The translations under genes and the position numbers were made by a program. Below, in pieces: positions 2,612 through 41,044 of a DNA stretch of 46,863 nt (position 1 is the first letter of the stretch; every line of letters starts with the position of its first letter). Location of the stretch: positions 1 through 46,863 of the forward strand of contig NZ_BHVX01000025.1 in NCBI RefSeq assembly GCF_003851545.1. Reading direction: 5' to 3'. Under the pieces are notes generated by a model, which saw nothing but the letters and a program-made list of their open reading frames with translations, was not told the origin of the DNA and searched no databases. The DNA is from Ralstonia sp. SET104 (GTDB taxonomy: Bacteria > Pseudomonadota > Gammaproteobacteria > Burkholderiales > Burkholderiaceae).

Positions 2612-2630
2612 AAAGACAAGCGCGCCCGAT

Positions 2631-2742: not shown

Positions 2743-2803
2743 ATAGGGCAGGGTACAGCCACACCTTCTTGGTGCTTGCCTTGGCGTCAAGGCGAATTCG
2801 GTA

Positions 2804-27678: not shown

Positions 27679-28140
27679 ATGGCTGCAAATTTGTGTATTC
27701 GCCCCATCCGTCAAGATGACTTTGCCGCCTGGAAACCCCTCTGGGATGGCTACAACGCCTTTTACGGCCGCGCGGGCGAAACTGCTTTGCCTGATCTCGT
27801 CACGCAGACGACATGGCAGCGCTTCTTCGATGAGCGGGAACCCGTCTACGCCATGGTCGCTGAGCGCGAGGGCGTGTTGCTCGGCATCGTGCATTTCCTC
27901 TTCCACCGCAGCACGACGCAGGTGCAGGCGAGCTGCTATCTGCAGGATTTGTTCACGGTTGAGGTTGCGCGCGGGCAGGGTGTTGGGCGCGCGCTGATCG
28001 AGGCTGTGTATCGCCGTGCTGCCGAGGCGGGCTCGCCGCGCGTGTACTGGCAAACGCACGAAACCAACGTAACGGCGATGAAGCTGTACGACACCATTGC
28101 CGAAAAATCCGGCTTCGTCGTCTACCGGAAGTTTCTGTAA
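27679..28140 (+). CDS. GNAT-family N-acetyltransferase
   Basis: The 153-residue protein shows the full GNAT fold: CIRPIRQDDFAAWKPLW at the start, the beta-4/5 segment YLQDLFTVEVARGQGVGRALIEAVY with the acetyl-CoA pyrophosphate loop (ARGQGVGRAL), then VYWQTHETNVTAMKLYD and VVYRKF. It would acetylate a small amine or a protein amino group; the substrate cannot be read from the sequence. The ATG at 27679 is preceded by weak ribosome-binding sequence. The frame is open back to the IS end. The IS lies 74 bases upstream and may have separated this gene from its promoter. Confidence 0.87.
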   Translation: MAANLCIRPIRQDDFAAWKPLWDGYNAFYGRAGETALPDLVTQTTWQRFFDEREPVYAMVAEREGVLLGIVHFLFHRSTTQVQASCYLQDLFTVEVARGQGVGRALIEAVYRRAAEAGSPRVYWQTHETNVTAMKLYDTIAEKSGFVVYRKFL

Positions 28141-28196
28141 TTGCGTTCGGGGCGCTGGGGGTGAGTTCGCCTCAAAACTGGCGCCGGGTGGGCAAT

Positions 28197-28233
28197 CCGG
28201 CTGAATAGCCGGCTTCCAGCGTGCCATTTTTTT
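28197..28233 (+). terminator. Candidate intrinsic terminator after the GNAT gene
   Basis: CCGGCT (28197-28202) pairs with AGCCGG (28207-28212) over a GAAT loop, and a run of seven T lies at 28227-28233. The 14-base gap between stem and T-run weakens the call. Confidence 0.5.
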
Positions 28234-28312
28234 CCAAAGCCATAGGGTAATCCCGCATCTTCGATTTCTAAGACGCGGTCTATAGTTGCACCTGTGTTCC
28301 AGATATTAACAG

Positions 28313-28341
28313 ACGTTTCATAGGTAAAACAAGTGAAACGT
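28313..28341. promoter_or_regulatory. Candidate IclR operator ahead of the 12-gene catabolic operon
   Basis: ACGTTTCA (28313-28320) is inverted as TGAAACGT (28334-28341). Within it GTTTCATAGGTAAAAC (28315-28330) has the same GTTTC-N6-RAAAC layout as the palindrome at 39842-39857. The site lies just before the first gene, and both copies share GACGTTTC followed by AAACAA. The IclR regulator encoded inside the operon (32063-32890) is the obvious candidate to bind both. Confidence 0.6.
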
Positions 28342-28357
28342 GATGGAGTCGACAGAA

Positions 28358-28663
28358 ATGCAACCGCAATACAACCCCGACCTCGCTCCGTGGGAGCCGA
28401 TTTCTCCGAACAACGTCGCTGGCAAGGGCCGTGTCGAGCGCCCCGGCCACGTTGCCAATCTGGTGTGGCAGACGCGCGCTGCCGAGCCGGCTGCCTATGA
28501 GAGCCAACTGGCCGATTCGCTTGAAGCAGCGTTCCTGGGCGGCGCGCAGACGCCGGCCGATATCGTCGTCGTGCTGAATGAGCGCGGCCCGCGCAACGCT
28601 GCCGGCGGTGAGGCCTGGACGGAAGCGGCATTCCTGGCGGAGATGCGCCGCCTGGGCGCCTGA
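28358..28663 (+). CDS. Small recombinase-like helix-turn-helix protein
   Basis: The 101-residue protein starts MQPQYNPDLAPWEPISPNN and ends GGEAWTEAAFLAEMRRLGA. The C-terminal part (TPADIVVVLNERGPRNAAGG, then WTEAAFLAEMRR) looks like the small helix-turn-helix of large serine recombinases (short loop, then W/T-x-x-x-L/V-x-x-hydrophobic), without any catalytic domain. I recall such proteins next to Rieske oxygenase genes in Burkholderiales, annotated as recombinase-like HTH. The start at 28358 follows GGAG at eight bases; 28343 is an alternative. It is the first gene of the operon. It may be an accessory or regulatory protein rather than a recombinase. Confidence 0.65.
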   Translation: MQPQYNPDLAPWEPISPNNVAGKGRVERPGHVANLVWQTRAAEPAAYESQLADSLEAAFLGGAQTPADIVVVLNERGPRNAAGGEAWTEAAFLAEMRRLGA

Positions 28664-28732
28664 GTACCACACGATTCGACGCCGCATCGTCCACAGAGAC
28701 GGCCGGCGCAACCCCATCAAGCGAGGTAAGCA

Positions 28733-29800
28733 ATGGAAGGCAACAAGGAAGCGCAGAAGGAAGCGCGCATCAACACCGGTCTGCGCAACTACTGGTATCC
28801 GGTGGCGGCGTCGTGGAATGTGAAGAACGCCCCGGTGGGCATGACCCGCCTGAGCCAGAACATCGTGCTGTGGCGTGATACCGCTGGCCAGGTGCATGCA
28901 CTCGAAGACCGCTGCCCGCATCGCGGCGCACGCCTGTCGATGGGCTGGAACCTGGGCGACCACGTGGCCTGCTGGTACCACGGTGTTGAAGTGAACGGCC
29001 AAGGTACGGTCACGAGTGTGCCGGCAGTCGATGCCTGCCCGATGGAAGGCAAGACCTGCGTACGCAGCTACCCCGTGCAGGAACGTGCCGGCGCCATCTT
29101 CCTGTGGTTTGGCGATAAGGCCCCCTCCGAGTTTGACGATGCCGTCGGCACGCTGCGCTTGCCCGAAGAGCTGACCAGCGACGAGCACAGCCACTTCCTC
29201 TGCTTTGCACACTGGAACGTCAACTACCGCTACGCCATCGACAACGTCATGGACCCGATGCACGGCGCATACCTGCACGCTGTGTCGCATTCGATGGCCA
29301 GCGGCGAGAAGAAGGCCGTGATGGAAGTGGTTGAAACCGAGCACGGGATCATGTTCCAGAAGACCGGGCAGCGCGGCGTGAACTTCGATTGGACCGAGTT
29401 TGGCGAGACCGGCACGATGTGGCTGCGCCTGTCGATTCCGTATCAGCCGAAGGTGGGGCCGGGCGGCCCGTTCACCATCATCGGCATCGTCACGCCGGTG
29501 GATGAAGAGCATTGCATCGTCTACTTCTGGCGCACGCGCCACGTGCAGGGCTGGGAGCGCGACGTGTGGCGCTTCCTGTATCGCAACCGTCTGGAAGGCC
29601 TGCACTGGGATGTGCTCGAACAGGACCGCGTGGTGCTCGAATCGATGGCGCCTGAAGCGCGCGATCACGAGACGCTGTACCAGCACGACATCGGCATCAC
29701 GCGCATCCGCCGTGTGCTGGCCCGCCGCGCTGCTGCCGAGTTGGCCGATGCCCCGGTCGCGATGCTCAAGCCGGTTGCCACGGAAGCCCAACATGCCTGA
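28733..29800 (+). CDS. Rieske non-haem iron ring-hydroxylating oxygenase, alpha subunit
   Basis: The 355-residue protein has a Rieske [2Fe-2S] domain with CPHRGA (Cys61, His63) and CWYHG (Cys80, His83). The mononuclear iron site is in NVMDPMHGAYLH (Asp174, His177, His182). It has the size of single-subunit (alpha-only) oxygenases of the VanA/phthalate 4,5-dioxygenase group, and no small beta subunit is present. Electrons should come from the VanB-type reductase encoded at the end of the operon (38809-39765). It would hydroxylate or demethylate an aromatic or heterocyclic substrate that is not identifiable from the sequence. Its last codons overlap the start of the next gene by eight bases. 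Confidence 0.93.
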   Translation: MEGNKEAQKEARINTGLRNYWYPVAASWNVKNAPVGMTRLSQNIVLWRDTAGQVHALEDRCPHRGARLSMGWNLGDHVACWYHGVEVNGQGTVTSVPAVDACPMEGKTCVRSYPVQERAGAIFLWFGDKAPSEFDDAVGTLRLPEELTSDEHSHFLCFAHWNVNYRYAIDNVMDPMHGAYLHAVSHSMASGEKKAVMEVVETEHGIMFQKTGQRGVNFDWTEFGETGTMWLRLSIPYQPKVGPGGPFTIIGIVTPVDEEHCIVYFWRTRHVQGWERDVWRFLYRNRLEGLHWDVLEQDRVVLESMAPEARDHETLYQHDIGITRIRRVLARRAAAELADAPVAMLKPVATEAQHA

Positions 29801-30566
29801 GCGCAATCCAGCCACCGGATTGCTGGCCGGCCGCAAGGTGCTCGTGACAGGTGCCGCACGCGGGCTGGGGCTGGCATTTGCCAAGTCCATTGCGCAAGCC
29901 GGCGGCGCGGTTGCGCTGGCAGACATTCTTGGCGAACGCGTGCAGGAAGAGGCCGCAGCACTGCGCGCGGCCGGTTTCGAGGCCCACGGCTTCACGCTCG
30001 ATCTGGGGGATCCGGCTTCCATTCGGGCCTGTGCTGTGGCGGCTGCGCAGGCACTGGGCGGGCTCGATGGCCTTGTCAACAACGCGGCCATCACCAATTC
30101 GGGCGGGCGCGATGCCTCGTCCATCGACGTGGACACCTGGGACCGCGTGATGACCGTCAACGTGCGCGGCACCTGGCTGATGACGACGGCCTGCCTGCCG
30201 GCACTCAAGGCGTCGGGGCGCGGCGCCATCGTCAACCTGTCGTCAGACACGCCGCTGTGGGGCGCGCCCAACTTGCTGGCTTATGTGGCCAGCAAGAGCG
30301 CCGTCATCGGCATGACCAAGTCTTTGGCGCGTGAATGCGGCGCAGACGGCATCACCGTCAACGCTATCGCGCCGGGTTTGACGCTGGTGGAAGCCACCGA
30401 ATATGTGCCGGCGCACCGGCATGCGCTGTACCGCGACCAGCGCGCCATCTCGCGCGATCAGATGCCCGGCGACGTCTGCGGCGCCGTGCTGTTCGCGTTG
30501 TCCGATCTTTCCCGGTTCGTGACGGGCCAGACGCTGGCCGTCAACGGCGGTTTTGTCATGCAGTAA
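29793..30566 (+). CDS. Short-chain dehydrogenase/reductase
   Basis: The 257-residue protein is a classical SDR with the cofactor motif TGAARGLG, NNAA, the catalytic Ser in IVNLSSDTP and the active-site YVASK. It ends with the usual VTGQTLAVNGG. Placed directly after the Rieske oxygenase and overlapping it by eight bases, it may dehydrogenate the cis-dihydrodiol or alcohol formed. The ATG at 29793 is chosen for this overlap and because the motifs start immediately after it. The frame continues upstream only as a shadow of the oxygenase gene. Confidence 0.9.
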   Translation: MPERNPATGLLAGRKVLVTGAARGLGLAFAKSIAQAGGAVALADILGERVQEEAAALRAAGFEAHGFTLDLGDPASIRACAVAAAQALGGLDGLVNNAAITNSGGRDASSIDVDTWDRVMTVNVRGTWLMTTACLPALKASGRGAIVNLSSDTPLWGAPNLLAYVASKSAVIGMTKSLARECGADGITVNAIAPGLTLVEATEYVPAHRHALYRDQRAISRDQMPGDVCGAVLFALSDLSRFVTGQTLAVNGGFVMQ

Positions 30567-30606
30567 TGCAGTAACGCATCCACACACCATTCAGAAGAGG
30601 TATTCG

Positions 30607-31143
30607 ATGAGCGATCTCTCCGAACAACAGCAAGTGCAGCGCACGTGGGACCGCCCGGAAGGCGCGTCGTTTGAAGACTGGATGAACAGCCGCGTGGCGC
30701 GTTTTTCCACCCGCCGATACGACTGGGATGCCCTCAAATTCCAGGCCGACTACGACCCGAAATACCGCCGCGCGCAAATGCGCTACCTCGGCACGGGCGG
30801 CACGGGCGTGTCGGCTGACACCAACACGGTGCCGGCGGAACACTTCACGTTTTCGACCATGGTCATTCCGGCAGGCCACGAAGGGCCGTCGCACCTCCAC
30901 ACCGATGTGGAAGAGGTGTTCTTCGTCATTCGCGGCAAGCTCAAGCTGGTGTTGGAGAAAGACGGCGAGCGTTACGAGACCATCCTGACCGACCGCGATC
31001 TCGTCTCGGTGCCGCCGGGTGTGTACCGCGAAGAAATCAACATCGGCGATGAAGACGCGCTGATGTGCGTGATGCTCGGGGCCAAGAAGCCGATCACGCC
31101 GACGTACCCGCCCGAGCACCCGCTCGCCAAGATCAAGCGTTGA
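30607..31143 (+). CDS. Cupin-domain protein
   Basis: The 178-residue protein has one conserved cupin barrel. Motif 1 is PAGHEGPSHLHTDVEEVFFVIRG, in which His96, His98 and an acidic residue near 102-103 form the metal site. Motif 2 is around LVSVPPGVYREEIN. About 80 residues precede the barrel (RPEGASFEDWMNSRVARFST). It may be a small metal dioxygenase, isomerase or decarboxylase in the pathway, or a sensor. GAGG lies a few bases before the ATG at 30607. It is four bases upstream of the alpha/beta hydrolase gene. Confidence 0.85.
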   Translation: MSDLSEQQQVQRTWDRPEGASFEDWMNSRVARFSTRRYDWDALKFQADYDPKYRRAQMRYLGTGGTGVSADTNTVPAEHFTFSTMVIPAGHEGPSHLHTDVEEVFFVIRGKLKLVLEKDGERYETILTDRDLVSVPPGVYREEINIGDEDALMCVMLGAKKPITPTYPPEHPLAKIKR

Positions 31144-31147
31144 TGCC

Positions 31148-32050
31148 ATGAGCGCGCAGGCTGTCATGTCTTCTGCACCATTTCGCGTTGCTGATGCGCT
31201 TGCCGCGCTCGGCGCCGCATTTGCCGAACACACCGTTACGATCAACGAGCGCGGCGATCGCATCGGCTATCGGCAATGGGGCGAGCGCGGGCCGGTGGTG
31301 GTGCTGTTGCACGGCATCAGCTCCAGCGCTGCGTCGTGGCTGCCGTGTGCGCGGATGCTGTCGCAAACCATGCGTGTGCTCGCATGGGATGCGCCAGGCT
31401 ACGGCAACTCCACGCCGCTTGCACAAGCCGAGCCGCGCGCAGCCGACTATGCCGTGCGGTTGCGTGCGTGGCTTGCCGAGCTGCATGTGAAGCCCGACGC
31501 GATCGTCGGCCATTCGTTGGGCGCGCTGATGGCGTCTGCCTATGTGGCCGAAGCGCCGACAGTGATGCAGCCCAAATGCTTGCTGCTTCTGAACCCTGCA
31601 CAGGGCTACGGCCGACCGGGGCAGGAAGAAGAGTCGCGCAGCGTGCAGGCCCAGCGCCTGGCAACGCTCGATCAGCTCGGCATCGATGGCATGGCGGAGT
31701 CGCGCCATGCGCATCTGCTGCGGCCCGATGCCACTGATGAAGAACGTGCCTGGGTGCGCTGGAACATGAAGCGCCTGAACGACGAAGGGTATCGCCAGGC
31801 CGTGGCGATGCTCAGCGGCGATGACATCAACACCTATCTGGGCAAGCGGCCCGCATCAACGTCAGCACAAATCGCCTGCGGCGATGTGGATTGCATCACA
31901 CCCCCGCAAGGCTGCAGAGCGCTGGCCGAGACGTTCGGCCTGCCGTTTGCGCTTGTGCGGGCTGCCGGGCACGCCTCCTATATCGATACGCCTGATGCCG
32001 TTGCAGGCTGGATCGAACAAGCCGTCCTCTCCAATTTTCGAAACGCCTAA
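31148..32050 (+). CDS. Alpha/beta hydrolase (ring-fission-product hydrolase-like)
   Basis: The 300-residue protein has an oxyanion loop LLHGISSSAASW, the nucleophile elbow IVGHSLGA with Ser123, an acid in CGDVDCITPP and the catalytic His in AGHASYIDTP. The overall pattern fits hydrolases that split C-C bonds of meta-cleavage products or simple enol-lactones and esters. Its place between ring-oxidation genes supports such a role. A start at 31166 (Met7) is an alternative. Confidence 0.87.
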   Translation: MSAQAVMSSAPFRVADALAALGAAFAEHTVTINERGDRIGYRQWGERGPVVVLLHGISSSAASWLPCARMLSQTMRVLAWDAPGYGNSTPLAQAEPRAADYAVRLRAWLAELHVKPDAIVGHSLGALMASAYVAEAPTVMQPKCLLLLNPAQGYGRPGQEEESRSVQAQRLATLDQLGIDGMAESRHAHLLRPDATDEERAWVRWNMKRLNDEGYRQAVAMLSGDDINTYLGKRPASTSAQIACGDVDCITPPQGCRALAETFGLPFALVRAAGHASYIDTPDAVAGWIEQAVLSNFRNA

Positions 32051-32062
32051 GCGCGAAGACGT

Positions 32063-32890
32063 ATGAGCAATGACCTCATCCCAGAAGACGTGCAGGAAAA
32101 GTACATCGTGCCTGGGCTCGAACGCGGCCTGCGCCTGCTGTGCGAGTTCAGCCACAAAGACCGCGTGCTGTCTGCACCGGAATTGGCGCGCCGCCTGAAG
32201 GTGCCGCGCTCGACGGTGTTCCGTCTGTTGACCACGCTTGAAGTGATGGGCTTTATCGAGCGTGTCGATGGCGGCCGTGATTTCCGTCTCGGTATGGCAG
32301 TGCTGCGCCTGGGCTTTGAATATCTGGCCTCGCTGGAGTTGACCGAGCTGGGCCGTCCGCTGCTTGATCGTCTGCGTGACGACATCCATTACCCGTGCAA
32401 CCTCGTCGTGCGTGACGGCCGTTCGATCGTTTACGTGGCGAAGTCAGTGGCGCCCACGCCGTTCACAAGTTCGGTCAATGTCGGTACGCGCCTGCCCGCG
32501 CATGCGACGGTGCTGGGCCGCGTGTTGCTGGCGGATCTGTCGTTGGCCGAATTGCGCCAGCTCTATCCGGAGCCGCAGCTGGAGGTGTTCTCCGCAAACA
32601 CGCCGCGCACGGTAGAAGAGCTGTTCGAGATGGTCCAGCGCGACCGCGAACACGGCTACGTGCTGCAGGAAGGTTTTTTCGAGGCCAACATTTCTACGAT
32701 TGCTGCGCCCGTGCTGGACCGTGCCGGCAAGGTGGTGGCTGCGCTCGGCACCACCATTCCGTCGCCGCGCATCGAAGCCGCGCAACTCGATTTGATGATC
32801 GACAAGGTGCGCGCCGCTGCGGGCGAACTGTCGTACTTGCTGGACTACCGCCCCGCCAGTGGCAAGGTCGTCAATCTGTTCCGGGAATGA
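32063..32890 (+). CDS. IclR-family transcriptional regulator
   Basis: The 275-residue protein has an N-terminal winged helix (VPGLERGLRLLCEF, then APELARRLKVPRSTVFRLLT, then DFRLGMAVLRLG). Its GAF-type effector domain includes PCNLVVRDGRSIVYVAKS, TRLPAHATVLGRVLLA and EGFFEANISTIAAPV. It is encoded inside the operon it probably controls, unlike the usual divergent layout. The stop overlaps the start of the next gene (ATGA). Candidate binding sites lie before the operon and before the porin-MFS unit. Confidence 0.92.
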   Translation: MSNDLIPEDVQEKYIVPGLERGLRLLCEFSHKDRVLSAPELARRLKVPRSTVFRLLTTLEVMGFIERVDGGRDFRLGMAVLRLGFEYLASLELTELGRPLLDRLRDDIHYPCNLVVRDGRSIVYVAKSVAPTPFTSSVNVGTRLPAHATVLGRVLLADLSLAELRQLYPEPQLEVFSANTPRTVEELFEMVQRDREHGYVLQEGFFEANISTIAAPVLDRAGKVVAALGTTIPSPRIEAAQLDLMIDKVRAAAGELSYLLDYRPASGKVVNLFRE

Positions 32891-33696
32891 CCATGCCGAT
32901 GATCGACCTGACTGGCAAGACCGCTGTTGTGACCGGAGGTTCGTCCGGCATTGGTCTCGCCACCGTTGAACTGCTGCTGGAAGCCGGCGCCGCCGTGGCG
33001 CTGTGCGGACGCAATGCAGAGCGCCTCGCAAACGCCGAGGAAGGCTTGCGTAACCGGTTCCCGAAGGCCACGTTGTTCGCCGCCAAGTGCGACGTGCTCG
33101 ATGCCATGCAGATGGCCGCGTTTGCCGATGCCGTGGAACAAGCGCTCGGCCCCATCGACATCCTGATCAACAACGCTGGCCAGGGCCGCGTCTCGACCTT
33201 TGCCGATACCGACGATGCCGCGTGGACGCAGGAGCTGCACCTCAAGTTCTTCTCCGTTATCCACCCCACGCGTGCCTTCCTGTCGCAACTGGAACGCTCG
33301 GCGCACGGTGCGATCGTCTGCGTGAATTCGCTGCTGGCGCAGCAGCCCGAGCCGCATATGGTGGCCACCTCGGCCGCGCGTGCCGGCGTGCTTAATTTGG
33401 TGCGCTCGATGGCCACCGAGTTCGCGCCGAAGGGCGTGCGTGTGAACGGCATCCTGATCGGGCTGGTCGAGTCCGGCCAGTGGCGCCGCCGCTTCGATGC
33501 GCGCCCCGAAGAAGACCAGCATCTCGACTGGGCCGCGTGGACGCGCCGCCTGGCCGCGCAAAAGCATATTCCCCTTGGCCGCCTGGGCCTGCCCGAAGAG
33601 GCAGCCCGCGCCATTCTGTTCCTTGCCTCGCCGTTGTCTTCGTACACCACGGGCAGCCACATCGATATCTCCGGAGGACACTCCCGTCATGCTTAA
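32887..33696 (+). CDS. SDR-family protein with substituted catalytic Tyr and Lys
   Basis: The 269-residue protein has a normal NAD(P) site (TGGSSGIG at 16-23, NNAG at 95-98) and catalytic-type Ser148 (VCVNSLL). At the canonical Ser+13 and Ser+17 positions it has Thr161 and Arg165 (ATSAARAG) instead of Tyr and Lys. The C-terminus TTGSHIDISGG is typical. It may be a dehydrogenase with altered chemistry, or may have lost oxidoreductase activity and bind cofactor for another purpose. The ATG at 32887 overlaps the iclR stop; Met at 32893 is an alternative. Its end overlaps the next gene by eight bases. Confidence 0.87.
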   Translation: MTMPMIDLTGKTAVVTGGSSGIGLATVELLLEAGAAVALCGRNAERLANAEEGLRNRFPKATLFAAKCDVLDAMQMAAFADAVEQALGPIDILINNAGQGRVSTFADTDDAAWTQELHLKFFSVIHPTRAFLSQLERSAHGAIVCVNSLLAQQPEPHMVATSAARAGVLNLVRSMATEFAPKGVRVNGILIGLVESGQWRRRFDARPEEDQHLDWAAWTRRLAAQKHIPLGRLGLPEEAARAILFLASPLSSYTTGSHIDISGGHSRHA

Positions 33697-35428
33697 TAGA
33701 CAACAACAGGAACGACAACACGAACAACAACTGGTCACGGTGGGCCACGCGATTGCAGCCTTCCTGGAGGCCTGCGAGGTCAAGGCCGCCTTTGGCGTGA
33801 TCTCCATCCACAACATGCCCATCCTTGATGCGATGGGCGAGCGCGGCAAGATTCGCTTCATCATGGCGCGCGGCGAAGCAGGCGGCGCCAACATGGCCGA
33901 CGCCTATGCCCGCACCACGGGTGGCCTGGGCGTATGCCTGACCAGCACCGGCACCGCGGCGGGCAATGCAGCCGGTGCGATGGTCGAGGCGCTGACCGCC
34001 GGCACGCCGCTGCTCCATATCACTGGCCAGATCGAAACGCCGTATCTGGACCAGAGCCTCGCATACATCCACGAAGCGCCGGACCAGCTCACGATGCTCA
34101 AGTCCGTCTCCAAGGCTGCCTTCCGCATTCGCAGTGCAGACACCGCCATCAGCACGATGAAGCTGGCGGTGCAGACAGCGCTGACGGCGCCGACGGGCCC
34201 GGTGAGCGTAGAGATTCCCATCGACATTCAGGCCGCGCTGATCCCGATGCCGGACGATTTGCGCCCGCTGCAGGTGCCGCAGCATGTGCCCTCGGCGCAC
34301 GCGCTGGATGCGCTGGCCGAGCGCCTGTCACACGCGCGCCGTCCGATGCTCTGGCTGGGCGGTGGCGCACGCCACGCTGTCAAGCAGGTCAAGCGTTTGA
34401 TGGATCTGGGTTTTGGCGTGGTCACCAGCACGCAGGGCCGCGGTATCGCGCCGGAGGATGATCCGCGCTCGCTGGGCGCGTTCAACCTGCACAAGCCGGT
34501 GGAAGCGTTCTACCAGACGTGCGATGCCATGGTCGTGGTCGGCTCGCGCCTGCGCGGCAATGAAACGCTCAAGTACGAACTGAAGTTGCCGCGTCCGTTG
34601 TACCGCATCGATGCAGATGCCTCGGCAGAAGGCCGTTGCTACGCCAGCGACTACTTCGTCTGCGGAGATTCGGCCCTCGCGCTGGATGGCCTGGCTGACC
34701 GGCTGGAAAACAGGATGCAGATCGACGCTGCATTTGCCGGTGATCTGCGTGCAGCACACGATACGGCGGTGGGTGGCCTGATCGATGGCCTGGGCCCGTA
34801 TGCGAAGCTGGTGGAAGCGCTGCAAGCTGCCGTGGGCCGCGAGTTCAATTGGGTGCGCGACGTGACGGTGTCGAACAGCACCTGGGGCAACCGCCAACTG
34901 CGCATCTTCGATTCGCGCGCCGGCGTGCATGCGCTGGGTGGCGGCATCGGCCAGGGCCTGGCAATGGGCATTGGGGCGGCCATCGGCTCGGCGGCCACGG
35001 CGTCGGGCAAGACCACGTTCTGCCTGGCCGGCGACGGCGGCTTCATTCTGAATCTGGGCGAACTGGCCACTGCCGTGCAGGAGCAGGCCAACCTTGTCAT
35101 CGTGCTGATGAACGACAAGGGCTACGGCGTCATCAAGAACATCCAGGATGCGCAATATGGCGGCCGCCGCCACTATGTGGATCTGCATACGCCGGATTAC
35201 GCGGCGCTCGCACAGTCGCTGCAACTGCGCCATCGCCGTGTGTCCGATCTGGCGGATGTGGGAAGCGCGCTGAAGGAAGCCGCCGCGGGCGAAGGCCCGT
35301 TCCTGATGGAGATCGACATGCTCTCCATCGGCAGCTTCAAGACCGTCTTCGCAGGCCCGCCGGTCAACCAGCAGGCCAAGGAAGGCTTGGGCGAACGCGC
35401 TGCCGAACGCACCACGGTGGTGGCGTGA
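33689..35428 (+). CDS. Thiamine-diphosphate-dependent enzyme (acetolactate synthase/2-oxoacid decarboxylase family)
   Basis: The 579-residue protein has the three-domain layout of the family. The Pyr domain carries the activating Glu63 (MARGEAGGANMADAYAR), followed by a central domain with WLGGGARHA. The PP domain has the ThDP/Mg motif LAGDGGFILNLGEL through to VLMND, near residues 446-477. It could decarboxylate a 2-oxo acid or carry out carboligation; the family is often misannotated as acetolactate synthase. The start at 33689 follows GGAGGA and overlaps the preceding SDR gene by eight bases. It sits next to an aspartate dehydrogenase-like and an aldehyde dehydrogenase gene, which supports a 2-oxoacid decarboxylase role. 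Confidence 0.9.
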   Translation: MLNRQQQERQHEQQLVTVGHAIAAFLEACEVKAAFGVISIHNMPILDAMGERGKIRFIMARGEAGGANMADAYARTTGGLGVCLTSTGTAAGNAAGAMVEALTAGTPLLHITGQIETPYLDQSLAYIHEAPDQLTMLKSVSKAAFRIRSADTAISTMKLAVQTALTAPTGPVSVEIPIDIQAALIPMPDDLRPLQVPQHVPSAHALDALAERLSHARRPMLWLGGGARHAVKQVKRLMDLGFGVVTSTQGRGIAPEDDPRSLGAFNLHKPVEAFYQTCDAMVVVGSRLRGNETLKYELKLPRPLYRIDADASAEGRCYASDYFVCGDSALALDGLADRLENRMQIDAAFAGDLRAAHDTAVGGLIDGLGPYAKLVEALQAAVGREFNWVRDVTVSNSTWGNRQLRIFDSRAGVHALGGGIGQGLAMGIGAAIGSAATASGKTTFCLAGDGGFILNLGELATAVQEQANLVIVLMNDKGYGVIKNIQDAQYGGRRHYVDLHTPDYAALAQSLQLRHRRVSDLADVGSALKEAAAGEGPFLMEIDMLSIGSFKTVFAGPPVNQQAKEGLGERAAERTTVVA

Positions 35429-35460
35429 GCCTGCAAGCGAATCCATCCAAGGAGCCAGAC

Positions 35461-36264
35461 ATGCTGCATGTATCGATGGTCGGTTGCGGAGCGATCGGGC
35501 TAGGCGTGCTGGAGTTGCTCAAAGCCGATCCGGACGTCTGCTTCGACACGGTGATCGTGCCCGAGCACGCAATGAACAAGGCACGCGAGGCCATCGCCCC
35601 GTTTGCCCCGAATGCACGCGTGACGACGCACCTGTCGGCGGATGCGCATCCTGACCTGTTGGTGGAGTGCGCTGGCCATGACGCGCTGGAAGAGCACGTG
35701 TTGCCGGCGCTGGAGCAGGGCATCGATTGCCTAGTGGTATCGGTCGGTGCGCTGTCCGAGCCCGGCGTGGCTGAGCGGCTGGAGGCGGCGGCCCGGCGCG
35801 GCAATGCCCAAGTGCAATTGTTGTCCGGCGCCATCGGTGCAATCGACGCGCTTGCCGCAGCGCGCGTCGGTGGGCTCGATGCCGTGGTCTACACGGGCCG
35901 CAAGCCCCCGCGCGCCTGGAAAGACACGCCGGCCGATCAACAGTTCGATCTCGATGCGCTGCGTGAGCCGACCGTGATTTTTGAAGGCAACGCCCGCGAA
36001 GCCGCACGCCTGTTCCCGAAGAACGCCAACGTAGCGGCCACGCTGTCGCTGGCGGGCCTCGGGCTGGAGCACACGCACGTCAAGCTGCTGGCCGACCCGA
36101 CGGTGGACGAGAACATCCACCACGTCGAGGCGCGCGGCGCCTTTGGCGGGTTCGAGCTGACCATGCGCGGCAAGCCGCTGGCGGCCAATCCCAAGACATC
36201 TGCGCTGACGGTGTTCAGCGTGGTGCGTGCGCTGGGCAATCGCGCGCACGCCGTTTCGATTTGA
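35461..36264 (+). CDS. L-aspartate dehydrogenase-family protein
   Basis: The 267-residue protein has the Rossmann motif VGCGAIGLGVLELL (Gly8, Gly10, Gly13), the conserved LVVSVGAL, LLSGAIGAIDAL and YTGRKPP segments, and His220 in VDENIHHVEARG, the conserved histidine of the family. These NAD(P) enzymes convert L-aspartate to iminosuccinate/oxaloacetate or form iminosuccinate for NAD synthesis. Within a catabolic operon it more probably acts on an amino-acid-type intermediate or removes ammonia. The ATG at 35461 follows AAGGAG. No nadA or nadC is nearby, which argues against a NAD-biosynthetic role. Confidence 0.9.
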   Translation: MLHVSMVGCGAIGLGVLELLKADPDVCFDTVIVPEHAMNKAREAIAPFAPNARVTTHLSADAHPDLLVECAGHDALEEHVLPALEQGIDCLVVSVGALSEPGVAERLEAAARRGNAQVQLLSGAIGAIDALAAARVGGLDAVVYTGRKPPRAWKDTPADQQFDLDALREPTVIFEGNAREAARLFPKNANVAATLSLAGLGLEHTHVKLLADPTVDENIHHVEARGAFGGFELTMRGKPLAANPKTSALTVFSVVRALGNRAHAVSI

Positions 36265-36280
36265 GTGAGGCCATTGCGCC

Positions 36281-37783
36281 ATGACTGTCTCTACCCTGAA
36301 CGCAACCGCAACGTCCGTGCTGCCGATCTGCATTGCAGGCGAATGGCGCCTCGGCACCGGCGAACGCTATGTCACGCGCTACCCGGCCACCGGTGAGGTC
36401 GTCGCAGAACTCAATGCCGCCAGCGTGGCTGACGTGCAAGAGGCTGTGGCCGGTGCGTACCGCGCCTTCCTCTCCAGCGGTTGGGCAAGCGCCAAGCCGC
36501 ACGAACGTGCTGCTGTGCTGTATCGCGTGGCCGATTTGATCCGCTCGCGCAGCGAAGCTCTGGCGCAACGCCAGCGCCTGGACAACGGCAAGCCGATCAA
36601 CGAGACGCGCGCCCTGGTGGCAAGCGCTGCCGCCACGTTCCAGTTTTTCGGCGCTGCGTGCGAGACGCTGGAGGAATCACTGACCCCCGCGCGTGGCGAT
36701 AGCCTGACGATGAGCGTGCATGAACCCATGGGCGTGGTGGCTGCCATCACACCGTGGAACTCGCCCATCGCCAGCGAAGCGCAGAAAATGGCGCCCGCGC
36801 TGGCCGCCGGCAACGCCGTCGTCGTCAAGCCGGCCGAAGTCACGCCGCTGATGGCGCTGGAACTGGCCGCCATCTGCGAAGAGGCGGGCGTGCCCAAGGG
36901 CATGATCAGCGTGCTGCCGGGAAAGGGCTCCGTCATCGGCGATGCGATCACCAAGCATCCGCTGGTGCGCCGTGTGTCGTTCACGGGCGGCACGAATACC
37001 GGGCGCCATATCGCACATATCGCGGCCGACAAGATGATGCCGGTGTCGCTCGAACTCGGTGGCAAGTCGCCGACGATGGTATTTGAAGATGCTGATATCG
37101 ACCACGCAGTGAACGGTGTGCTGTACGGCATCTTCAGCTCGTCGGGTGAATCGTGCATCGCGGGTTCGCGCCTGTTTGTGGCGCGCTCGCTGTACGAGCC
37201 ATTCATGGATCGCCTGGCTGCCGCTGCTGCCCGTTTGCGCGTTGGTAACCCGGCCGACGAGGCTACGCAGATGGGCCCGCTGATCACGGATCGCCACCGC
37301 GAGACCATCGAGTCGTACGTCGCCATGGGTGTGGAAGAGGGCGGCCACCTGCGCACGGGCGGCCTGCGCCCGGAAATCTCTGGCTGCGAGTCGGGCTACT
37401 TCTACACGCCGACCATCATCGAGGGGCTTACCAACAGCGCGCGCATCTGCCAGGAAGAAATCTTTGGCCCGGTGCTCGTCGCCATGGCCTTCGACAACGA
37501 AGACGAACTCATCGAACAGGCCAACGACAGCGTCTACGCACTGGCTGCCGGTATCTGGACGCGCGACTACAAGCGCGCCTGGCGCATCGGCCGCGCCGTG
37601 CAGGCCGGCAATGTGTGGATCAACACGTACAAACAGTTCTCGATCTCGACGCCATTTGGCGGCTGGCGCGACAGCGGGCTGGGCCGCGAGAAGGGGCGCC
37701 TGGGCATCCTGCAGTACATGGAACAGAAGAGCCTCTACTGGGGCCTGAACGAACAACCGCTGGCCTGGGCCAACGCCAACTGA
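36281..37783 (+). CDS. NAD(P)-dependent aldehyde dehydrogenase
   Basis: The 500-residue protein is a full-length ALDH with Asn160 (ITPWNSP), the general base Glu258 (SLELGGKSP) and the nucleophile Cys292 (SSGESCIAGSR). The PFGGWRDSGLGREKG segment is near the C-terminus. It should oxidise an aldehyde to a carboxylic acid, consistent with the upstream ThDP decarboxylase producing an aldehyde. It is 16 bases downstream of the aspartate dehydrogenase-like gene. The substrate is unknown; the closest named relatives I recall are benzaldehyde/betaine-aldehyde type enzymes. Confidence 0.93.
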   Translation: MTVSTLNATATSVLPICIAGEWRLGTGERYVTRYPATGEVVAELNAASVADVQEAVAGAYRAFLSSGWASAKPHERAAVLYRVADLIRSRSEALAQRQRLDNGKPINETRALVASAAATFQFFGAACETLEESLTPARGDSLTMSVHEPMGVVAAITPWNSPIASEAQKMAPALAAGNAVVVKPAEVTPLMALELAAICEEAGVPKGMISVLPGKGSVIGDAITKHPLVRRVSFTGGTNTGRHIAHIAADKMMPVSLELGGKSPTMVFEDADIDHAVNGVLYGIFSSSGESCIAGSRLFVARSLYEPFMDRLAAAAARLRVGNPADEATQMGPLITDRHRETIESYVAMGVEEGGHLRTGGLRPEISGCESGYFYTPTIIEGLTNSARICQEEIFGPVLVAMAFDNEDELIEQANDSVYALAAGIWTRDYKRAWRIGRAVQAGNVWINTYKQFSISTPFGGWRDSGLGREKGRLGILQYMEQKSLYWGLNEQPLAWANAN

Positions 37784-37818
37784 AGCCAAAGCAAACGCCC
37801 GGACCACAGGAGATGAAG

Positions 37819-38787
37819 ATGAACACGATTCGAGGCATCGACGAAATCGTCTACGGTGCCGACGACCTCGCCGCTTGCAAGCGGTTCTTCCAGGATTGGG
37901 GGCTCGCCCTGCAATCGGAAGACGCCGGCGGCCTGCTGTTCGAAACGCTCAACGGTTGCCGCGTACGCGTCAAGCGCAGCGACGATATAACGCTGCCGCC
38001 CGCCATGGAAGCCGGCCCGACGTTGCGTGAAGTGATCTGGGGCGCCGATTCGCAGGCCGTGCTCGATCGTCTGGCCGATAAGCTGGCCGACCAGCCCGGC
38101 TACGTCAACGCGGATGGCCGCGTCGGCTGCACGGACCCTAACGGCCTGGCCGTGCGTGTGCAGCTGACCGCCAAGCGCGACATCGACGTGCAATGCGCCG
38201 AGATGAATACGTGGACGGACAAGCCGCGCCGCAACCAGCCCAGCCCGATCTACGAACGCGCCACGCCCATTGAGGTCGGCCACGTGGTGTTCTTCGTGAA
38301 GGACGTGGCGGCGACGGAACGCTTCTATATCGAGAAGCTCGGCTTTGTGCCGTCTGACCACTACCCGGGCCGGGGCGCGTTTCTGCGCTGCGAACCCGAG
38401 GGTGGCCATCACGACCTGTTTCTGCTGCAAACGCCGCAGGCCAAGAGCGGGCTCAACCACGTGGCCTTTACGGTGCGCGACATTCACGAAGTGTTTGGTG
38501 GTGGCATGCATGTATCGCGCAGCGGTTGGGATACGCAATTAGGCCCGGGCCGTCACCCGATCTCGTCGGCGTATTTCTGGTACTTCAAGAACCCCGCCGG
38601 TGGCCTGATCGAGTACTACGCCGATGAAGACCAGCTTGACGCCAATTGGCAGCCGCGCGATTTCGAGCCCGGCCCGACCGTGTTTGCCGAATGGGCGATC
38701 GACGGCGGCATTGATGGCAACACGCGCCGCCAGAAGAACGTCGCCGGCCCGGAAGGCAAGTTCCTGACGGAAAAGGAAAAGCGCTGA
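37819..38787 (+). CDS. Two-domain VOC protein, extradiol dioxygenase-like
   Basis: The 322-residue protein has two vicinal-oxygen-chelate domains. The C-terminal domain carries a full 2-His-1-carboxylate metal site: His155 (EVGHVVFFVKD), His214 (GLNHVAFTV) and Glu265 (GLIEYYADED). The N-terminal domain (RGIDEIVYGADDL) lacks these ligands, as in type I extradiol dioxygenases. It is likely to cleave a catechol-type ring at the meta position. The C-terminal tail (NTRRQKNVAGPEGKFLTEKE) is longer than usual. The start at 37819 is chosen because AGGAG lies six bases before it; 37813 is also possible. Confidence 0.88.
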   Translation: MNTIRGIDEIVYGADDLAACKRFFQDWGLALQSEDAGGLLFETLNGCRVRVKRSDDITLPPAMEAGPTLREVIWGADSQAVLDRLADKLADQPGYVNADGRVGCTDPNGLAVRVQLTAKRDIDVQCAEMNTWTDKPRRNQPSPIYERATPIEVGHVVFFVKDVAATERFYIEKLGFVPSDHYPGRGAFLRCEPEGGHHDLFLLQTPQAKSGLNHVAFTVRDIHEVFGGGMHVSRSGWDTQLGPGRHPISSAYFWYFKNPAGGLIEYYADEDQLDANWQPRDFEPGPTVFAEWAIDGGIDGNTRRQKNVAGPEGKFLTEKEKR

Positions 38788-38808
38788 AACGTTGCAGAGA
38801 GAAGTGCT

Positions 38809-39765
38809 ATGAGTACGAATTTCCCCCTCAACCTGCGCGTGCACGCCATGCGCTACGAAGCCCAAGGCATCGTGAGCGTGGAGCTGCGCGACGTTGACGG
38901 CAAGACCTTGCCCGAGTACGCCCCCGGTGCGCATATCGAGCTGCATCTGGGCAACGGGCTGGTGCGCAGTTATTCGCTGTGCGGTGCGCCTGAGGTGCGT
39001 GACCGCTACGTGGTCGGCGTGCTGCTTGATCGCAACAGCCGTGGCGGCTCGCGTTATGTGCATGAGCAGTTGCGTGTGGGCTCGATGCTCAAGATTGGGG
39101 GCCCGCGCAACCACTTTGAGCTGGATGAAACTGCGCCGCGCACGGTGCTTGTCGCCGGTGGTATCGGTGTCACGCCTATCGTCTGCATGGCGCGTCGCTT
39201 GGCCGAGCAGGGCAAGGTGTTCTCGATGCTCTACTGCGCACGCTCGCACGCTGAAGCGGCTTTCGCTGATGAGCTGGCCGCGCATGGCGATGCGGTGCGC
39301 TTCCACCTGGATGCCGAAGCCGGCGGCCCGCCTGATCTGAAAGCACTGCTTGCAGGGCATCCGGCCGATACGCACTTCTATTGCTGCGGCCCAGGCCCGA
39401 TGCTGCGCGCCTTTGAGTCGGCATGTGAGGCACTTGGCTATGCCAACGTCCATATCGAACGCTTTGCAGCTGACCCCGGCGTGGAGTCGGTGCAGGACGG
39501 GGAGTATCAGGTCAGACTCGCGCGCACCGGTGCTGAGCTGTGTGTGCCGGCCGGCAAGTCGCTGCTCGATGCGCTGCTCGAGATTGGCGTGGAGGTGGAA
39601 CACAGCTGCAAGGAAGGCGTGTGCGGCTCGTGCGAAACACGCGTGCTGGAAGGCGAGCCCGACCACCGTGACAGCGTGCTCTCCAAGAGCGAGCGCGCAT
39701 CCAACCAAACGATGATGGTTTGCGTATCCGGCTGCAAAGGCAAGCGGCTGGTGATTGATCTGTAA
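38809..39765 (+). CDS. VanB/PDR-type ferredoxin-NAD(P)H reductase
   Basis: The 318-residue protein has, in order, an FMN-binding barrel (VRSYSLCGAPEVRDRYVVGV), an NAD(P)-binding domain (VLVAGGIGVTPIVCMAR, then FYCCGPGPML) and a C-terminal plant-type [2Fe-2S] domain with CKEGVCGSC (Cys267, Cys272, Cys275) and a fourth ligand at Cys305. This is the phthalate dioxygenase reductase/VanB layout, which passes electrons from NAD(P)H to a Rieske oxygenase. Its partner is almost certainly the oxygenase at 28733-29800, ten genes upstream. It is the last gene of the operon and is followed by a terminator. Confidence 0.93.
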   Translation: MSTNFPLNLRVHAMRYEAQGIVSVELRDVDGKTLPEYAPGAHIELHLGNGLVRSYSLCGAPEVRDRYVVGVLLDRNSRGGSRYVHEQLRVGSMLKIGGPRNHFELDETAPRTVLVAGGIGVTPIVCMARRLAEQGKVFSMLYCARSHAEAAFADELAAHGDAVRFHLDAEAGGPPDLKALLAGHPADTHFYCCGPGPMLRAFESACEALGYANVHIERFAADPGVESVQDGEYQVRLARTGAELCVPAGKSLLDALLEIGVEVEHSCKEGVCGSCETRVLEGEPDHRDSVLSKSERASNQTMMVCVSGCKGKRLVIDL

Positions 39766-39943: not shown

Positions 39944-41044
39944 ATGAAGACAACCTTGTTCGCCATTGCGGCGATGTGCCTTGCTGGTACGGCAGCGGCC
40001 CAGAGCAACGTGACGCTGTACGGCAGCATTGATGAAGGCGTGGCCTACATCAACAGCCTGAAGAGCGGCGCGAGCAGTGGCTCGGCGTTGCGTATGGACC
40101 CGGGTACCATGCAGCCGGATCGCTTCGGCCTGCGCGGCTCGGAGGATCTTGGCGGCGGCACGCAGGCCATCTTCCAGTTGGAGTCGGGCTTTCTGGGCGA
40201 CACGGGCAGCAGCGTGGTGGCCGGCAAGCTGTTCAACCGGACCGCGTGGGTGGGCCTTACCAGCGATCGCCTGGGCAACATCCAGCTTGGTCATCAGGCG
40301 GATTTCATGTTCGATTACCTTGGTCGCCTGAGTAACGGTTTTCAGCTCACCAACTTCTACCTGTTCCACCCGGGCAACTTCGACAACCTGGCCAACCAGT
40401 TCCAGATCGACAACGCTGTGCGTTACGTCTCCCCCATCTTCGGCGGGCTGCAACTGGGCGGTGTGTACGGCTTTGGTGAAGTGCCTGGCTCGCCGTCCAA
40501 GAGCCGCAGCTACAGCCTGGGCGCGTACTACACCAACGGCGGTTTTCGTGCTGCTGCCGCCTACACGGCATCGAACGACCGCGCGCTGGACATCGCGGGC
40601 CGCTTGGGGATCACCAACACGCTGGGCACGACGCTGGTGCCAGGTGTGATGACGCCGATGAGTTCGGTCAAGTCCTTCGGTACCGGCGCGCTGTATCAGT
40701 TCAGCGGCCTGCCGCTGCAGTTCAACGCCGTCTACACGCAAACGCGCATTACCCTGGGTGGCGCCAATGCCCGCGCACAGAACGTCGACCTGGGTACCGC
40801 TTGGCACTACAGCGCCGCCAACACGCTCAACGTGGGTTATACCTTCAGCAAGTACGAGGGCGCCCGCTGGAATCAGTTCAGCCTGGGCAACGTGTATGCC
40901 TTCTCCAAGCGCACGCAGGTGTACGTGCAAGGCACCTACCAGCGTGCGGCTGGCGATGCGCAGTCCGCTGCCATCAACGGCGTGGGCGTGTCGGCACAGC
41001 GCAACCAACTCGTTGTCAGCACCGGGGTGCATCACTCGTTCTGA
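39944..41044 (+). CDS. Gram-negative porin (OmpC-like)
   Basis: The 366-residue protein has a signal peptide (MKTTLFAIAAMCLAGTAAA), the porin start QSNVTLYGSIDEGVAYINS, the segments DRFGLRGSEDLGGGTQAIFQ and FLGDTGSSVVAGKLFNRTAW, and a C-terminal VSTGVHHSF ending in Phe. It should form a trimeric outer-membrane channel, probably for the substrate of the adjacent operon. GGAGGA precedes the ATG. It is followed after 75 bases by an aromatic-acid MFS carrier on the same strand. Confidence 0.92.
   Translation: MKTTLFAIAAMCLAGTAAAQSNVTLYGSIDEGVAYINSLKSGASSGSALRMDPGTMQPDRFGLRGSEDLGGGTQAIFQLESGFLGDTGSSVVAGKLFNRTAWVGLTSDRLGNIQLGHQADFMFDYLGRLSNGFQLTNFYLFHPGNFDNLANQFQIDNAVRYVSPIFGGLQLGGVYGFGEVPGSPSKSRSYSLGAYYTNGGFRAAAAYTASNDRALDIAGRLGITNTLGTTLVPGVMTPMSSVKSFGTGALYQFSGLPLQFNAVYTQTRITLGGANARAQNVDLGTAWHYSAANTLNVGYTFSKYEGARWNQFSLGNVYAFSKRTQVYVQGTYQRAAGDAQSAAINGVGVSAQRNQLVVSTGVHHSF

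What the first reader, a model, noticed from the sequence alone, without database searches (positions are those of the whole stretch)
28358..39765. Twelve-gene Rieske-oxygenase operon for an unidentified, possibly nitrogen-containing substrate
Seen: one strand, gaps of at most 69 bases and four start/stop overlaps (29793, 32887, 33689 and the near-contact at 31148). Order: recombinase-like HTH, Rieske alpha subunit, SDR, cupin, alpha/beta hydrolase, IclR, atypical SDR, ThDP enzyme, aspartate dehydrogenase-like, ALDH, VOC extradiol-like, VanB-type reductase. Established: Rieske plus VanB reductase, extradiol-type VOC and alpha/beta hydrolase form ring hydroxylation and meta-cleavage modules. 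Inference: the pathway hydroxylates and opens a ring, and the AspDH/ThDP/ALDH trio processes an amino- or oxo-acid side chain or product. I know of no characterised pathway with this exact set.
Basis: partly seen in the sequence, partly recalled or inferred. Interest (0 to 1): 0.8.

Follow-up and report, generated by a model that had tools for sequence, protein, structure and literature searches.

The report
Likely kynurenic acid breakdown operon
A block of twelve neighbouring genes, kept together in many bacteria, matches step by step the kind of enzymes described in the 1960s for breaking down kynurenic acid, a tryptophan product active in the brain and immune system, and may supply genes for that pathway; the substrate is not yet proven.

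Summary
The operon is real: twelve same-strand ORFs at 28358-39765, gaps of at most 69 bases, three overlaps. It is widely conserved. Of 107 fetched loci holding its ThDP and AspDH genes, 104 hold its Rieske gene, in Ralstonia, Cupriavidus, Herbaspirillum, Pseudomonas, Klebsiella, Acinetobacter, alphaproteobacteria and Streptomyces, in several gene orders and with three kinds of electron donor. All 26 plasmid records with the Rieske gene (E at most 1e-40) also carry the ThDP gene. Catalytic residues are intact, but SDR2 lacks the SDR Tyr/Lys pair.

Best reading (inference, 0.63): kynurenate breakdown. Rieske plus reductase make the 7,8-dihydrodiol; SDR1 makes 7,8-dihydroxykynurenate; VOC opens the ring; SDR2, ThDP and ALDH reduce, decarboxylate and oxidise the side chain; cupin and alpha/beta hydrolase break the remaining pyridine ring; AspDH takes the iminosuccinate/aspartate piece. 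The route's chemistry is mostly recalled.

Against: no activity data; no kynurenine gene in any of 114 loci; co-occurrence with tryptophan dioxygenase no better than a control. Six open-access searches on kynurenate, listings only, showed no gene assignment.

The parts
28358..28663 (+). small HTH_62 (recombinase-like helix-turn-helix) protein, 101 aa; function unknown, found beside the Rieske gene
   Evidence: Pfam PF20552 83 bits, cut-off 27; BLAST family in 107 of 114 loci, 59 of 114 by direct tblastn with this protein
28733..29800 (+). Rieske non-haem iron oxygenase alpha subunit, VanA_C type; proposed kynurenate 7,8-dioxygenase
   Evidence: PF00355 and PF19112 above cut-off; C61/H63/C80/H83 and D174/H177/H182/D298 conserved in at least 97% of 111 rows
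29793..30566 (+). SDR1, classical SDR; proposed dihydrodiol dehydrogenase
   Evidence: PF13561 183 bits; S151/Y164/K168 conserved in at least 97% of 103 rows
30607..31143 (+). cupin, 178 aa; proposed ring-opening step (unassigned chemistry)
   Evidence: PF07883 45.9 bits; H96/H98/E102/E103 conserved, second-motif His replaced by R141; 41-89% identical to 23 relatives
31148..32050 (+). alpha/beta hydrolase; proposed C-N or C-C hydrolase of the ring fragment
   Evidence: PF12697 64.8 bits; triad S123-D248-H275 conserved; model pLDDT 95 resembles esterases and an enol-lactonase
32063..32890 (+). IclR-type regulator, nearest the PcaR/PobR group
   Evidence: TIGR02431 173 bits, below its cut-off of 285
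32887..33696 (+). SDR2, atypical SDR without the Tyr/Lys pair; proposed C=C reductase of the ring-cleavage side chain
   Evidence: NCBIfam PRK07062 461 bits, cut-off 266; T161 and R165 at the YxxxK positions, at least 97% of 112 rows
33689..35428 (+). ThDP-dependent enzyme; proposed 2-oxo-acid decarboxylase
   Evidence: PRK07064 935 bits, cut-off 495; E63, G448-D449-G450 and N475 conserved
35461..36264 (+). L-aspartate dehydrogenase family; proposed to take the iminosuccinate/aspartate fragment
   Evidence: PRK13303.1-2 527 bits, cut-off 226; PF01958 117 bits; aligns with solved L-aspartate dehydrogenase 2dc1
36281..37783 (+). aldehyde dehydrogenase; proposed oxidation of the 2-formylethyl side chain
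   Evidence: PF00171 563 bits; N160/E258/C292 conserved
37813..38787 (+). VOC type I extradiol dioxygenase; proposed 7,8-dihydroxykynurenate 8,8a-dioxygenase
   Evidence: PF00903 52 bits; HpaD 62 bits, below the equivalog cut-off of 321; H157/H216/E267 and H200/H248/Y257 conserved
38809..39765 (+). VanB-type reductase (FAD/NAD plus C-terminal 2Fe-2S)
   Evidence: PF00111 50 bits, PF00175 29 bits; replaced by ferredoxin plus FAD reductase, or FAD-dependent reductase plus flavodoxin, in some other taxa
39944..41044 (+). porin, possibly part of the unit (uptake)
   Evidence: PF13609 161 bits; this porin family in 72 of 114 loci, not always downstream
41120..42511 (+). MFS transporter of the aromatic acid/H+ symporter type, possibly part of the unit
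   Evidence: TIGR00895 218 bits, below its cut-off of 419; this MFS family in 31 of 114 loci; follows the reductase directly in the Cupriavidus loci listed

Best explanation
The operon breaks down kynurenic acid, and in related clusters perhaps xanthurenic acid after another hydroxylase. (1) Porin and MFS take it up. (2) The Rieske oxygenase, fed by the VanB-type reductase, adds O2 at C7/C8. (3) SDR1 oxidises the dihydrodiol to 7,8-dihydroxykynurenate. (4) The VOC enzyme cuts the C8-C8a bond, leaving a 4,6-dihydroxypicolinate ring with a 3-carboxy-3-oxopropenyl side chain. (5) SDR2, which lacks the usual Tyr/Lys, reduces the side-chain double bond. (6) The ThDP enzyme decarboxylates the 2-oxo acid to an aldehyde. 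(7) ALDH oxidises it to 5-(2-carboxyethyl)-4,6-dihydroxypicolinate. (8) Cupin and alpha/beta hydrolase open the lactam and break the C4-C5 bond, which on paper gives glutarate and 2-iminosuccinate. (9) AspDH interconverts iminosuccinate, aspartate and oxaloacetate. Shown: genes, families, catalytic residues, conservation. Recalled: the chemistry of steps 2-4, 6 and 7 and the existence of step 5. Inferred: every gene-to-step assignment, and all of step 8.
For: Every reaction type in the recalled pathway has one candidate gene in the operon, and no catalytic gene is left over: Rieske plus reductase, SDR, extradiol VOC, second SDR, ThDP, ALDH, hydrolase and cupin, AspDH. A ThDP plus ALDH pair after meta-cleavage is unusual for benzene-ring pathways (general knowledge) and is what this pathway needs. 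SDR2's conserved loss of Tyr/Lys suits C=C rather than carbonyl reduction. Hydrolysis and C4-C5 cleavage of the last ring gives a C4 imino-diacid, which explains AspDH. The genes behave as one pathway: Rieske in 104 of 107 loci with ThDP and AspDH, 26 of 26 plasmid records with Rieske also hold ThDP, several gene orders. Related clusters add enzymes fitting an N-heteroaromatic carboxylate: a flavoprotein in 30 loci, whose tested member is nearest 6-hydroxynicotinate 3-monooxygenase (290 bits), and a RidA-family protein in 34. PMC5610271 (passages) cites Taniuchi and Hayaishi 1963 for enzymatic formation of 7,8-dihydroxykynurenic acid.
Against: No activity data. The middle of the pathway is from memory; no paper read here gives it step by step. 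No kynA, kynB or kynU homologue lies in any of the 114 loci. Tryptophan dioxygenase occurs in all 156 Rieske-positive family genomes, but homogentisate dioxygenase, a control, occurs in 154 of them, so this is uninformative. The Rieske enzyme's best solved relative is dicamba O-demethylase, 81 bits, so a demethylase or monooxygenase role is possible. Cupin and ABH structure searches were generic. Three of the four alphaproteobacterial clusters read lack the small cupin and have a longer one. A CoA-transferase/acyl-CoA dehydrogenase pair beside one cluster, which I hoped was glutarate utilisation, did not score as such. Molybdenum-hydroxylase genes downstream in eight Cupriavidus-type loci lie among genes that look like a MarR regulator and Bug-type binding proteins and may belong to a separate nicotinate-like cluster. 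In the Vibrio cluster, which has the flavoprotein but no Rieske or SDR1, the flavoprotein reading frame is split in this record and the chromosome was not searched, so this clue is weak.
Confidence: 0.63

Rival explanations
1. The same chemistry on a different bicyclic N-heteroaromatic, such as xanthurenate alone, quinaldate or another hydroxyquinoline carboxylate: dihydroxylation of the benzene ring, extradiol cleavage, decarboxylation and oxidation of the side chain, then opening of the pyridine ring.
For: The enzyme types would be the same. A partial copy in Caballeronia NK8 lies beside a three-subunit molybdenum hydroxylase, as expected for quinaldate or quinoline use; its large subunit matches quinoline 2-oxidoreductase at 268 bits but 4-hydroxybenzoyl-CoA reductase better at 438. 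NicC-like flavoprotein and RidA-family protein in related clusters.
Against: Without a 2-carboxylate and a 4-oxygen on the pyridine ring the final fragment would not be aspartate-like, leaving AspDH unexplained. Molybdenum-hydroxylase families were seen in few of the 114 loci (6 and 4 loci). The breadth of hosts (156 of 299 family genomes; Klebsiella and Acinetobacter records) points to a common natural substrate.
Confidence: 0.19
2. One reading: a single aromatic ring carrying an amino-acid side chain is hydroxylated and meta-cleaved, while AspDH, ThDP and ALDH deaminate, decarboxylate and oxidise the side chain.
For: AspDH, ThDP and ALDH are adjacent in the window and in nearly all of the 80 loci laid out, and in principle form an amino acid to oxo acid to aldehyde to acid chain.
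Against: AspDH belongs to the family of a C4-dicarboxylate enzyme (PRK13303.1-2, 527 bits; aligned with 2dc1), not an aromatic amino-acid dehydrogenase. ThDP, AspDH and ALDH stay with the ring-cleavage genes even where the gene order is scrambled, which either reading allows.
Confidence: 0.1
3. An aromatic ether or methylamine demethylase pathway: the VanA/DdmC-like Rieske enzyme removes a methyl group to give a catechol that is meta-cleaved.
For: VanA_C domain; nearest solved relative dicamba O-demethylase; VanB-type reductase.
Against: No vanillate-demethylase equivalog model rings. SDR1 directly after the oxygenase fits a dihydrodiol dehydrogenase. ThDP and AspDH are left unexplained. Formaldehyde or folate genes near the clusters were not searched for.
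Confidence: 0.05

Closest known systems
Classical bacterial kynurenate (quinoline) pathway, EC 1.14.99.2, 1.3.1.18, 1.13.11.10 (names and numbers recalled; Taniuchi and Hayaishi 1963 seen only as a reference in PMC5610271)
   Same: Same series of reaction types: dihydroxylation, dihydrodiol dehydrogenase, extradiol cleavage, 2-oxo-acid decarboxylation, aldehyde oxidation
   Different: Known to me as enzyme activities; I found no genes assigned to it. The cupin, ABH and AspDH end steps are my proposal
Meta-cleavage pathways (catechol 2,3-dioxygenase, HpaD)
   Same: Type I extradiol dioxygenase fold with HHE metal site; ALDH and alpha/beta hydrolase present
   Different: No hydratase or aldolase among the twelve genes; ThDP enzyme and AspDH instead; VOC scores far below the HpaD and C23O equivalog cut-offs
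VanAB / DdmC-type Rieske systems
   Same: VanA_C oxygenase with a single-protein FNR-type reductase
   Different: Reductase exchanged for ferredoxin plus FAD reductase, or FAD-dependent reductase plus flavodoxin, in some taxa; accompanied by SDR1 and VOC
L-aspartate dehydrogenase (NadX-type) enzymes; Pseudomonas aeruginosa PA3505 is recalled as a characterised member in a similar gene cluster (not tested here)
   Same: Same family, over the NCBIfam cut-off
   Different: Located in a ring-cleavage operon rather than among NAD biosynthesis genes

Membership tests
Kynurenate 7,8-dihydrodiol pathway | Ring-hydroxylating oxygenase with intact Rieske and mononuclear iron ligands plus a reductase | tested here: met
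Kynurenate 7,8-dihydrodiol pathway | NAD-dependent dihydrodiol dehydrogenase (a classical SDR here) | tested here: inconclusive
   SDR1 keeps S151/Y164/K168; the activity itself is untested
Kynurenate 7,8-dihydrodiol pathway | Extradiol dioxygenase with complete active site | tested here: met
   H157/H216/E267/H200/H248/Y257 in at least 97% of 108 rows; roles of the residues are general knowledge
Kynurenate 7,8-dihydrodiol pathway | Separate side-chain reductase, 2-oxo-acid decarboxylase and aldehyde dehydrogenase | tested here: inconclusive
   Families and catalytic residues present; reactions inferred
Kynurenate 7,8-dihydrodiol pathway | Acts on kynurenate | not testable with these tools
   Needs enzyme assay or growth test
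Kynurenate 7,8-dihydrodiol pathway | Genomic link to kynurenine formation (supporting, not defining) | tested here: not met
   0 of 114 loci hold kynA/B/U homologues (the three query genes confirmed); genome-level TDO co-occurrence 156 of 156 against 154 of 156 for a control
Vanillate O-demethylase (VanA) | VanA_C domain | tested here: met
   PF19112 54 bits, cut-off 23.5
Vanillate O-demethylase (VanA) | Match to a demethylase equivalog model | tested here: not met
   Four NCBIfam hits, none a demethylase; best 4beta-methylsterol monooxygenase, 81 against cut-off 600
HpaD / catechol 2,3-dioxygenase | Equivalog score | tested here: not met
   62 against 321 and 55 against 320
L-aspartate dehydrogenase | Over the NCBIfam equivalog cut-off | tested here: met
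   527 against 226

The most novel reading that the evidence does not exclude
These genes are the missing sequences for three activities I recall as sequence-less (EC 1.14.99.2, 1.3.1.18, 1.13.11.10) and for a new ending in which a highly conserved cupin and an alpha/beta hydrolase dismantle a 4,6-dihydroxypicolinate to glutarate and iminosuccinate, captured by AspDH. The pathway would be widespread in soil bacteria and present in opportunists such as Klebsiella pneumoniae and Acinetobacter baumannii, so that microbes could remove host-derived kynurenic acid. A NicC-like flavoprotein would let some clusters also use xanthurenic acid.
Probability: 0.42. Interest if true: 0.85.

Novelty: new variant of a known kind. 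Interest (0 to 1): 0.7.

Why it matters
Kynurenic acid is a neuroactive and immune-active tryptophan product. PMC5610271 (passage) says its fate is not known in yeast or higher eukaryotes, with a degradation pathway suggested in Pseudomonas fluorescens. If the assignment is right, a widely conserved operon without a name here gains a function, three activities that I recall as lacking sequences gain them, and bacterial kynurenate removal can be tracked in genomes and metagenomes. The claim can be tested with one growth assay and one enzyme assay.

Tried and rejected
Co-occurrence with tryptophan 2,3-dioxygenase: 156 of 156 Rieske-positive family genomes against 225 of 299 overall; the control HgmA gives 154 of 156 (misses G663 and G664) against 222 of 299 (recounted from the listings). 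Not evidence.

Adjacent kynurenine genes: the own genome's arylformamidase, kynureninase and tryptophan dioxygenase genes and the other ORFs of at least 180 aa around them, searched against 114 loci at E 1e-20, 35% identity and half the query length, gave no hit.

Glutarate genes beside the Pseudosulfitobacter cluster: the CoA-transferase scored 275 against cut-off 750 for succinate-glutarate CoA-transferase, with two other models scoring higher; the acyl-CoA dehydrogenase scored 230 against 470 for a glutaryl-CoA dehydrogenase, with three other models higher. Rejected as support.

Molybdenum-hydroxylase genes downstream in Cupriavidus-type loci: intervening genes suggest a separate cluster (their labels are mine, not scanned). 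Only the Caballeronia pNK84 case is kept, as weak support.

Vibrio as a natural 'flavoprotein instead of Rieske' case: on checking, the flavoprotein frame in this record ends early and its C-terminal part lies in another frame, and the Vibrio chromosome was not searched. Downgraded to a weak clue.

Structure searches: cupin model weak (pLDDT 68) and its matches generic; ABH generic. Promoter and terminator scans: nothing above chance. No inverted repeat of 12 or more bases at 28140-28760 with arms within 60 bases.

Literature: ten searches. Six asked about kynurenate and four about the genes. Searches matched more papers (22 and 175) than the 20 listed. None of the listed titles and abstracts reports a kynurenate gene cluster. 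Passages only were read in PMC5757984, PMC9732424, PMC11354734, PMC5610271 and PMC5897657; the rest were seen as listings. PMC5757984 reports Acinetobacter baumannii L-aspartate dehydrogenase, betaine-aldehyde dehydrogenase and acetolactate-synthase genes raised on mucin; whether these are the present cluster was not tested.

Counts quoted are BLAST-family counts; direct tblastn labels differ by up to seven for the enzymes (for example VOC 108, cupin 108, ThDP 111).

Full report
OBSERVATION. A porin and an MFS transporter of the aromatic-acid type follow on the same strand; the same families occur in 72 and 31 of 114 related loci, not always downstream. Simple promoter and terminator scans gave nothing above chance, so co-transcription rests on spacing and conservation.

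WHERE IT OCCURS. One scan of named genomes with the ThDP protein returned the 80 best loci of 360 that encode a relative. A tblastn layout shows largely the same gene set in records titled Ralstonia, Cupriavidus, Herbaspirillum, Collimonas, Massilia, Pusillimonas, Variovorax, Polaromonas, Thauera and Pseudomonas. The window's genome is probably Ralstonia: the six nearest loci (L003-L008), titled Ralstonia or Burkholderiaceae, are 84-100% identical protein by protein. The Rieske gene occurs in 15 of 16 genomes of the window's genus, 156 of 299 of its family, and only in the own genome among 369 drawn from the class; the thresholds were E of 1e-60, 1e-50 and 1e-60. In the plasmid collection 26 records hold the Rieske gene at E of 1e-40 or better, and all 26 are among the 29 that hold the ThDP gene at 1e-60. 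The three extra are two Vibrio nigripulchritudo records and a Variovorax paralogue in a different setting.

ONE PATHWAY, SHUFFLED. Over 114 loci read with a crude gene caller, BLAST families give SDR2, Rieske and ThDP each in 110, IclR in 109, HTH, ABH, AspDH and ALDH in 107, SDR1 and cupin in 104, VOC in 101 and the VanB-type reductase in 78. Of 107 loci with ThDP and AspDH, 104 have the Rieske gene; the exceptions are two short contigs and Vibrio. Gene order differs between Ralstonia, Cupriavidus, Herbaspirillum-type, Pusillimonas-type, Klebsiella, Acinetobacter, Novosphingobium, other alphaproteobacterial and Streptomyces clusters. The electron donor is exchanged: of the 107, 77 have the VanB-type reductase, 14 a ferredoxin and/or FAD reductase, and 16 neither; among the 16 are three alphaproteobacterial clusters with an FAD-dependent reductase plus flavodoxin, and truncated or rearranged loci. 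Content held together while order changes is what a single pathway looks like.

CATALYTIC ANATOMY. Alignments of 103 to 112 rows per protein, window included, keep the Rieske and iron ligands, the classical catalytic residues in SDR1, the metal and acid-base residues of an extradiol enzyme in VOC, the Ser-Asp-His triad in ABH, the ALDH cysteine and glutamate, and the ThDP glutamate and GDG motif. SDR2 consistently lacks the Tyr/Lys pair: Thr161 and Arg165 stand there in at least 97% of 112 rows. The cupin keeps H96, H98 and E102 but has Arg141 in place of the usual second-motif histidine, and is 41-89% identical to 23 relatives. Residue roles are from general knowledge of these folds.

THE MATCH. 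I recall from textbook and KEGG-type knowledge that Pseudomonas converts kynurenate to its 7,8-dihydrodiol, then 7,8-dihydroxykynurenate, then by extradiol cleavage to 5-(3-carboxy-3-oxopropenyl)-4,6-dihydroxypicolinate, which is reduced, decarboxylated to the 2-formylethyl compound and oxidised to the 2-carboxyethyl compound. In the library, PMC5610271 (passages) cites Taniuchi and Hayaishi 1963 on enzymatic formation of 7,8-dihydroxykynurenic acid; I read no paper giving the whole route. The operon holds one candidate for each reaction type. The remaining genes (cupin, ABH, AspDH) fall into place if the last ring is hydrolysed at N1-C6 and split at C4-C5: on paper this gives glutarate and a C4 imino-diacid, the natural partner of an aspartate dehydrogenase. 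That last part is my derivation and is not in any source I read.

CLUES FROM VARIANTS. A second architecture (Herbaspirillum, Pseudomonas, Pusillimonas, Variovorax and others) adds, in varying combinations, an NMT1-type ABC binding protein (41 loci), a RidA-family protein (34), an unknown protein of about 110 aa (34) and a flavoprotein monooxygenase (30). The one flavoprotein compared with solved structures is nearest 6-hydroxynicotinate 3-monooxygenase, 290 bits. On the Vibrio plasmid that flavoprotein gene accompanies the core genes while Rieske and SDR1 are absent from the locus and no Rieske match was found on the record; this would fit entry from the 8-hydroxy compound xanthurenate, but the flavoprotein frame is split in this record and the chromosome was not searched. 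Caballeronia NK8 has a complete copy and a partial one (ferredoxin, HTH, Rieske, ThDP, VOC) beside a three-subunit molybdenum hydroxylase, the enzyme class I recall as making kynurenate from quinaldate.

AGAINST. Nothing here shows the substrate. Kynurenine-pathway genes are not in any of the 114 loci, although the own genome has arylformamidase, kynureninase and tryptophan dioxygenase genes elsewhere. The genome-level co-occurrence test failed its control. The glutarate-gene lead failed. Related quinoline carboxylates cannot be excluded.

NOVELTY. Six full-text searches on kynurenate and four on the genes of an open-access library listed no paper assigning a gene cluster to kynurenate degradation; two of the lists were cut at 20, and subscription papers are mostly outside the library. 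NCBIfam names ThDP and SDR2 only generically. I rate it a new variant of a known kind: familiar enzyme families in a pathway known as chemistry, with an unexplained and apparently new ending.

Noticed in passing
window 1178-4162: Fumarylacetoacetase and homogentisate 1,2-dioxygenase genes (611 and 678 bits, over cut-off), with an aromatic-acid-type MFS gene at 4220-5620 (389 bits, below its cut-off of 419) and an FAD monooxygenase at 6901-8580: the window holds a second aromatic-catabolism region.
   Followed up: partly
window 26438-27576: Two ORFs of an insertion-sequence transposase (transposase HTH and integrase core domains) upstream of the operon, between a porin and a GNAT gene.
   Followed up: partly
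window 42575-43453: Tartronate-semialdehyde (2-hydroxy-3-oxopropionate) reductase on the minus strand after the MFS gene (TIGR01505 397 bits, cut-off 341); the start is probably 43453 rather than 43837.
   Followed up: no
L028 16189-16521, L052 2734-3051: A protein of about 110 aa in 34 of 114 loci, close to the Rieske gene of the second architecture; no NCBIfam match for the L028 copy and no Pfam match for a similar-looking L052 ORF.
   Followed up: partly
L085 and L127 (Vibrio nigripulchritudo plasmid): Core cluster with a NicC-like flavoprotein gene, TRAP transporter and glutathione S-transferase but no Rieske or SDR1 in the locus; the flavoprotein is not in the record's gene table and its frame is split, so it may be broken or misread in this record.
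   Followed up: partly
L095 (Klebsiella pneumoniae), L084 (Acinetobacter baumannii): Versions of the cluster with ferredoxin and FAD reductase; in the Klebsiella pneumoniae record it lies between speB and tkt, a chromosome-like neighbourhood.
   Followed up: partly
L087 (Variovorax SRS16): ThDP paralogue (47% identical) beside a hydroxymethylglutaryl-CoA lyase gene and near CoA-transferase genes, hinting at another use of this ThDP family.
   Followed up: no
L032, L092, L107: A CoA-transferase family near the cluster in three of 114 loci; the L092 member is family III by Pfam; substrate unclear.
   Followed up: partly
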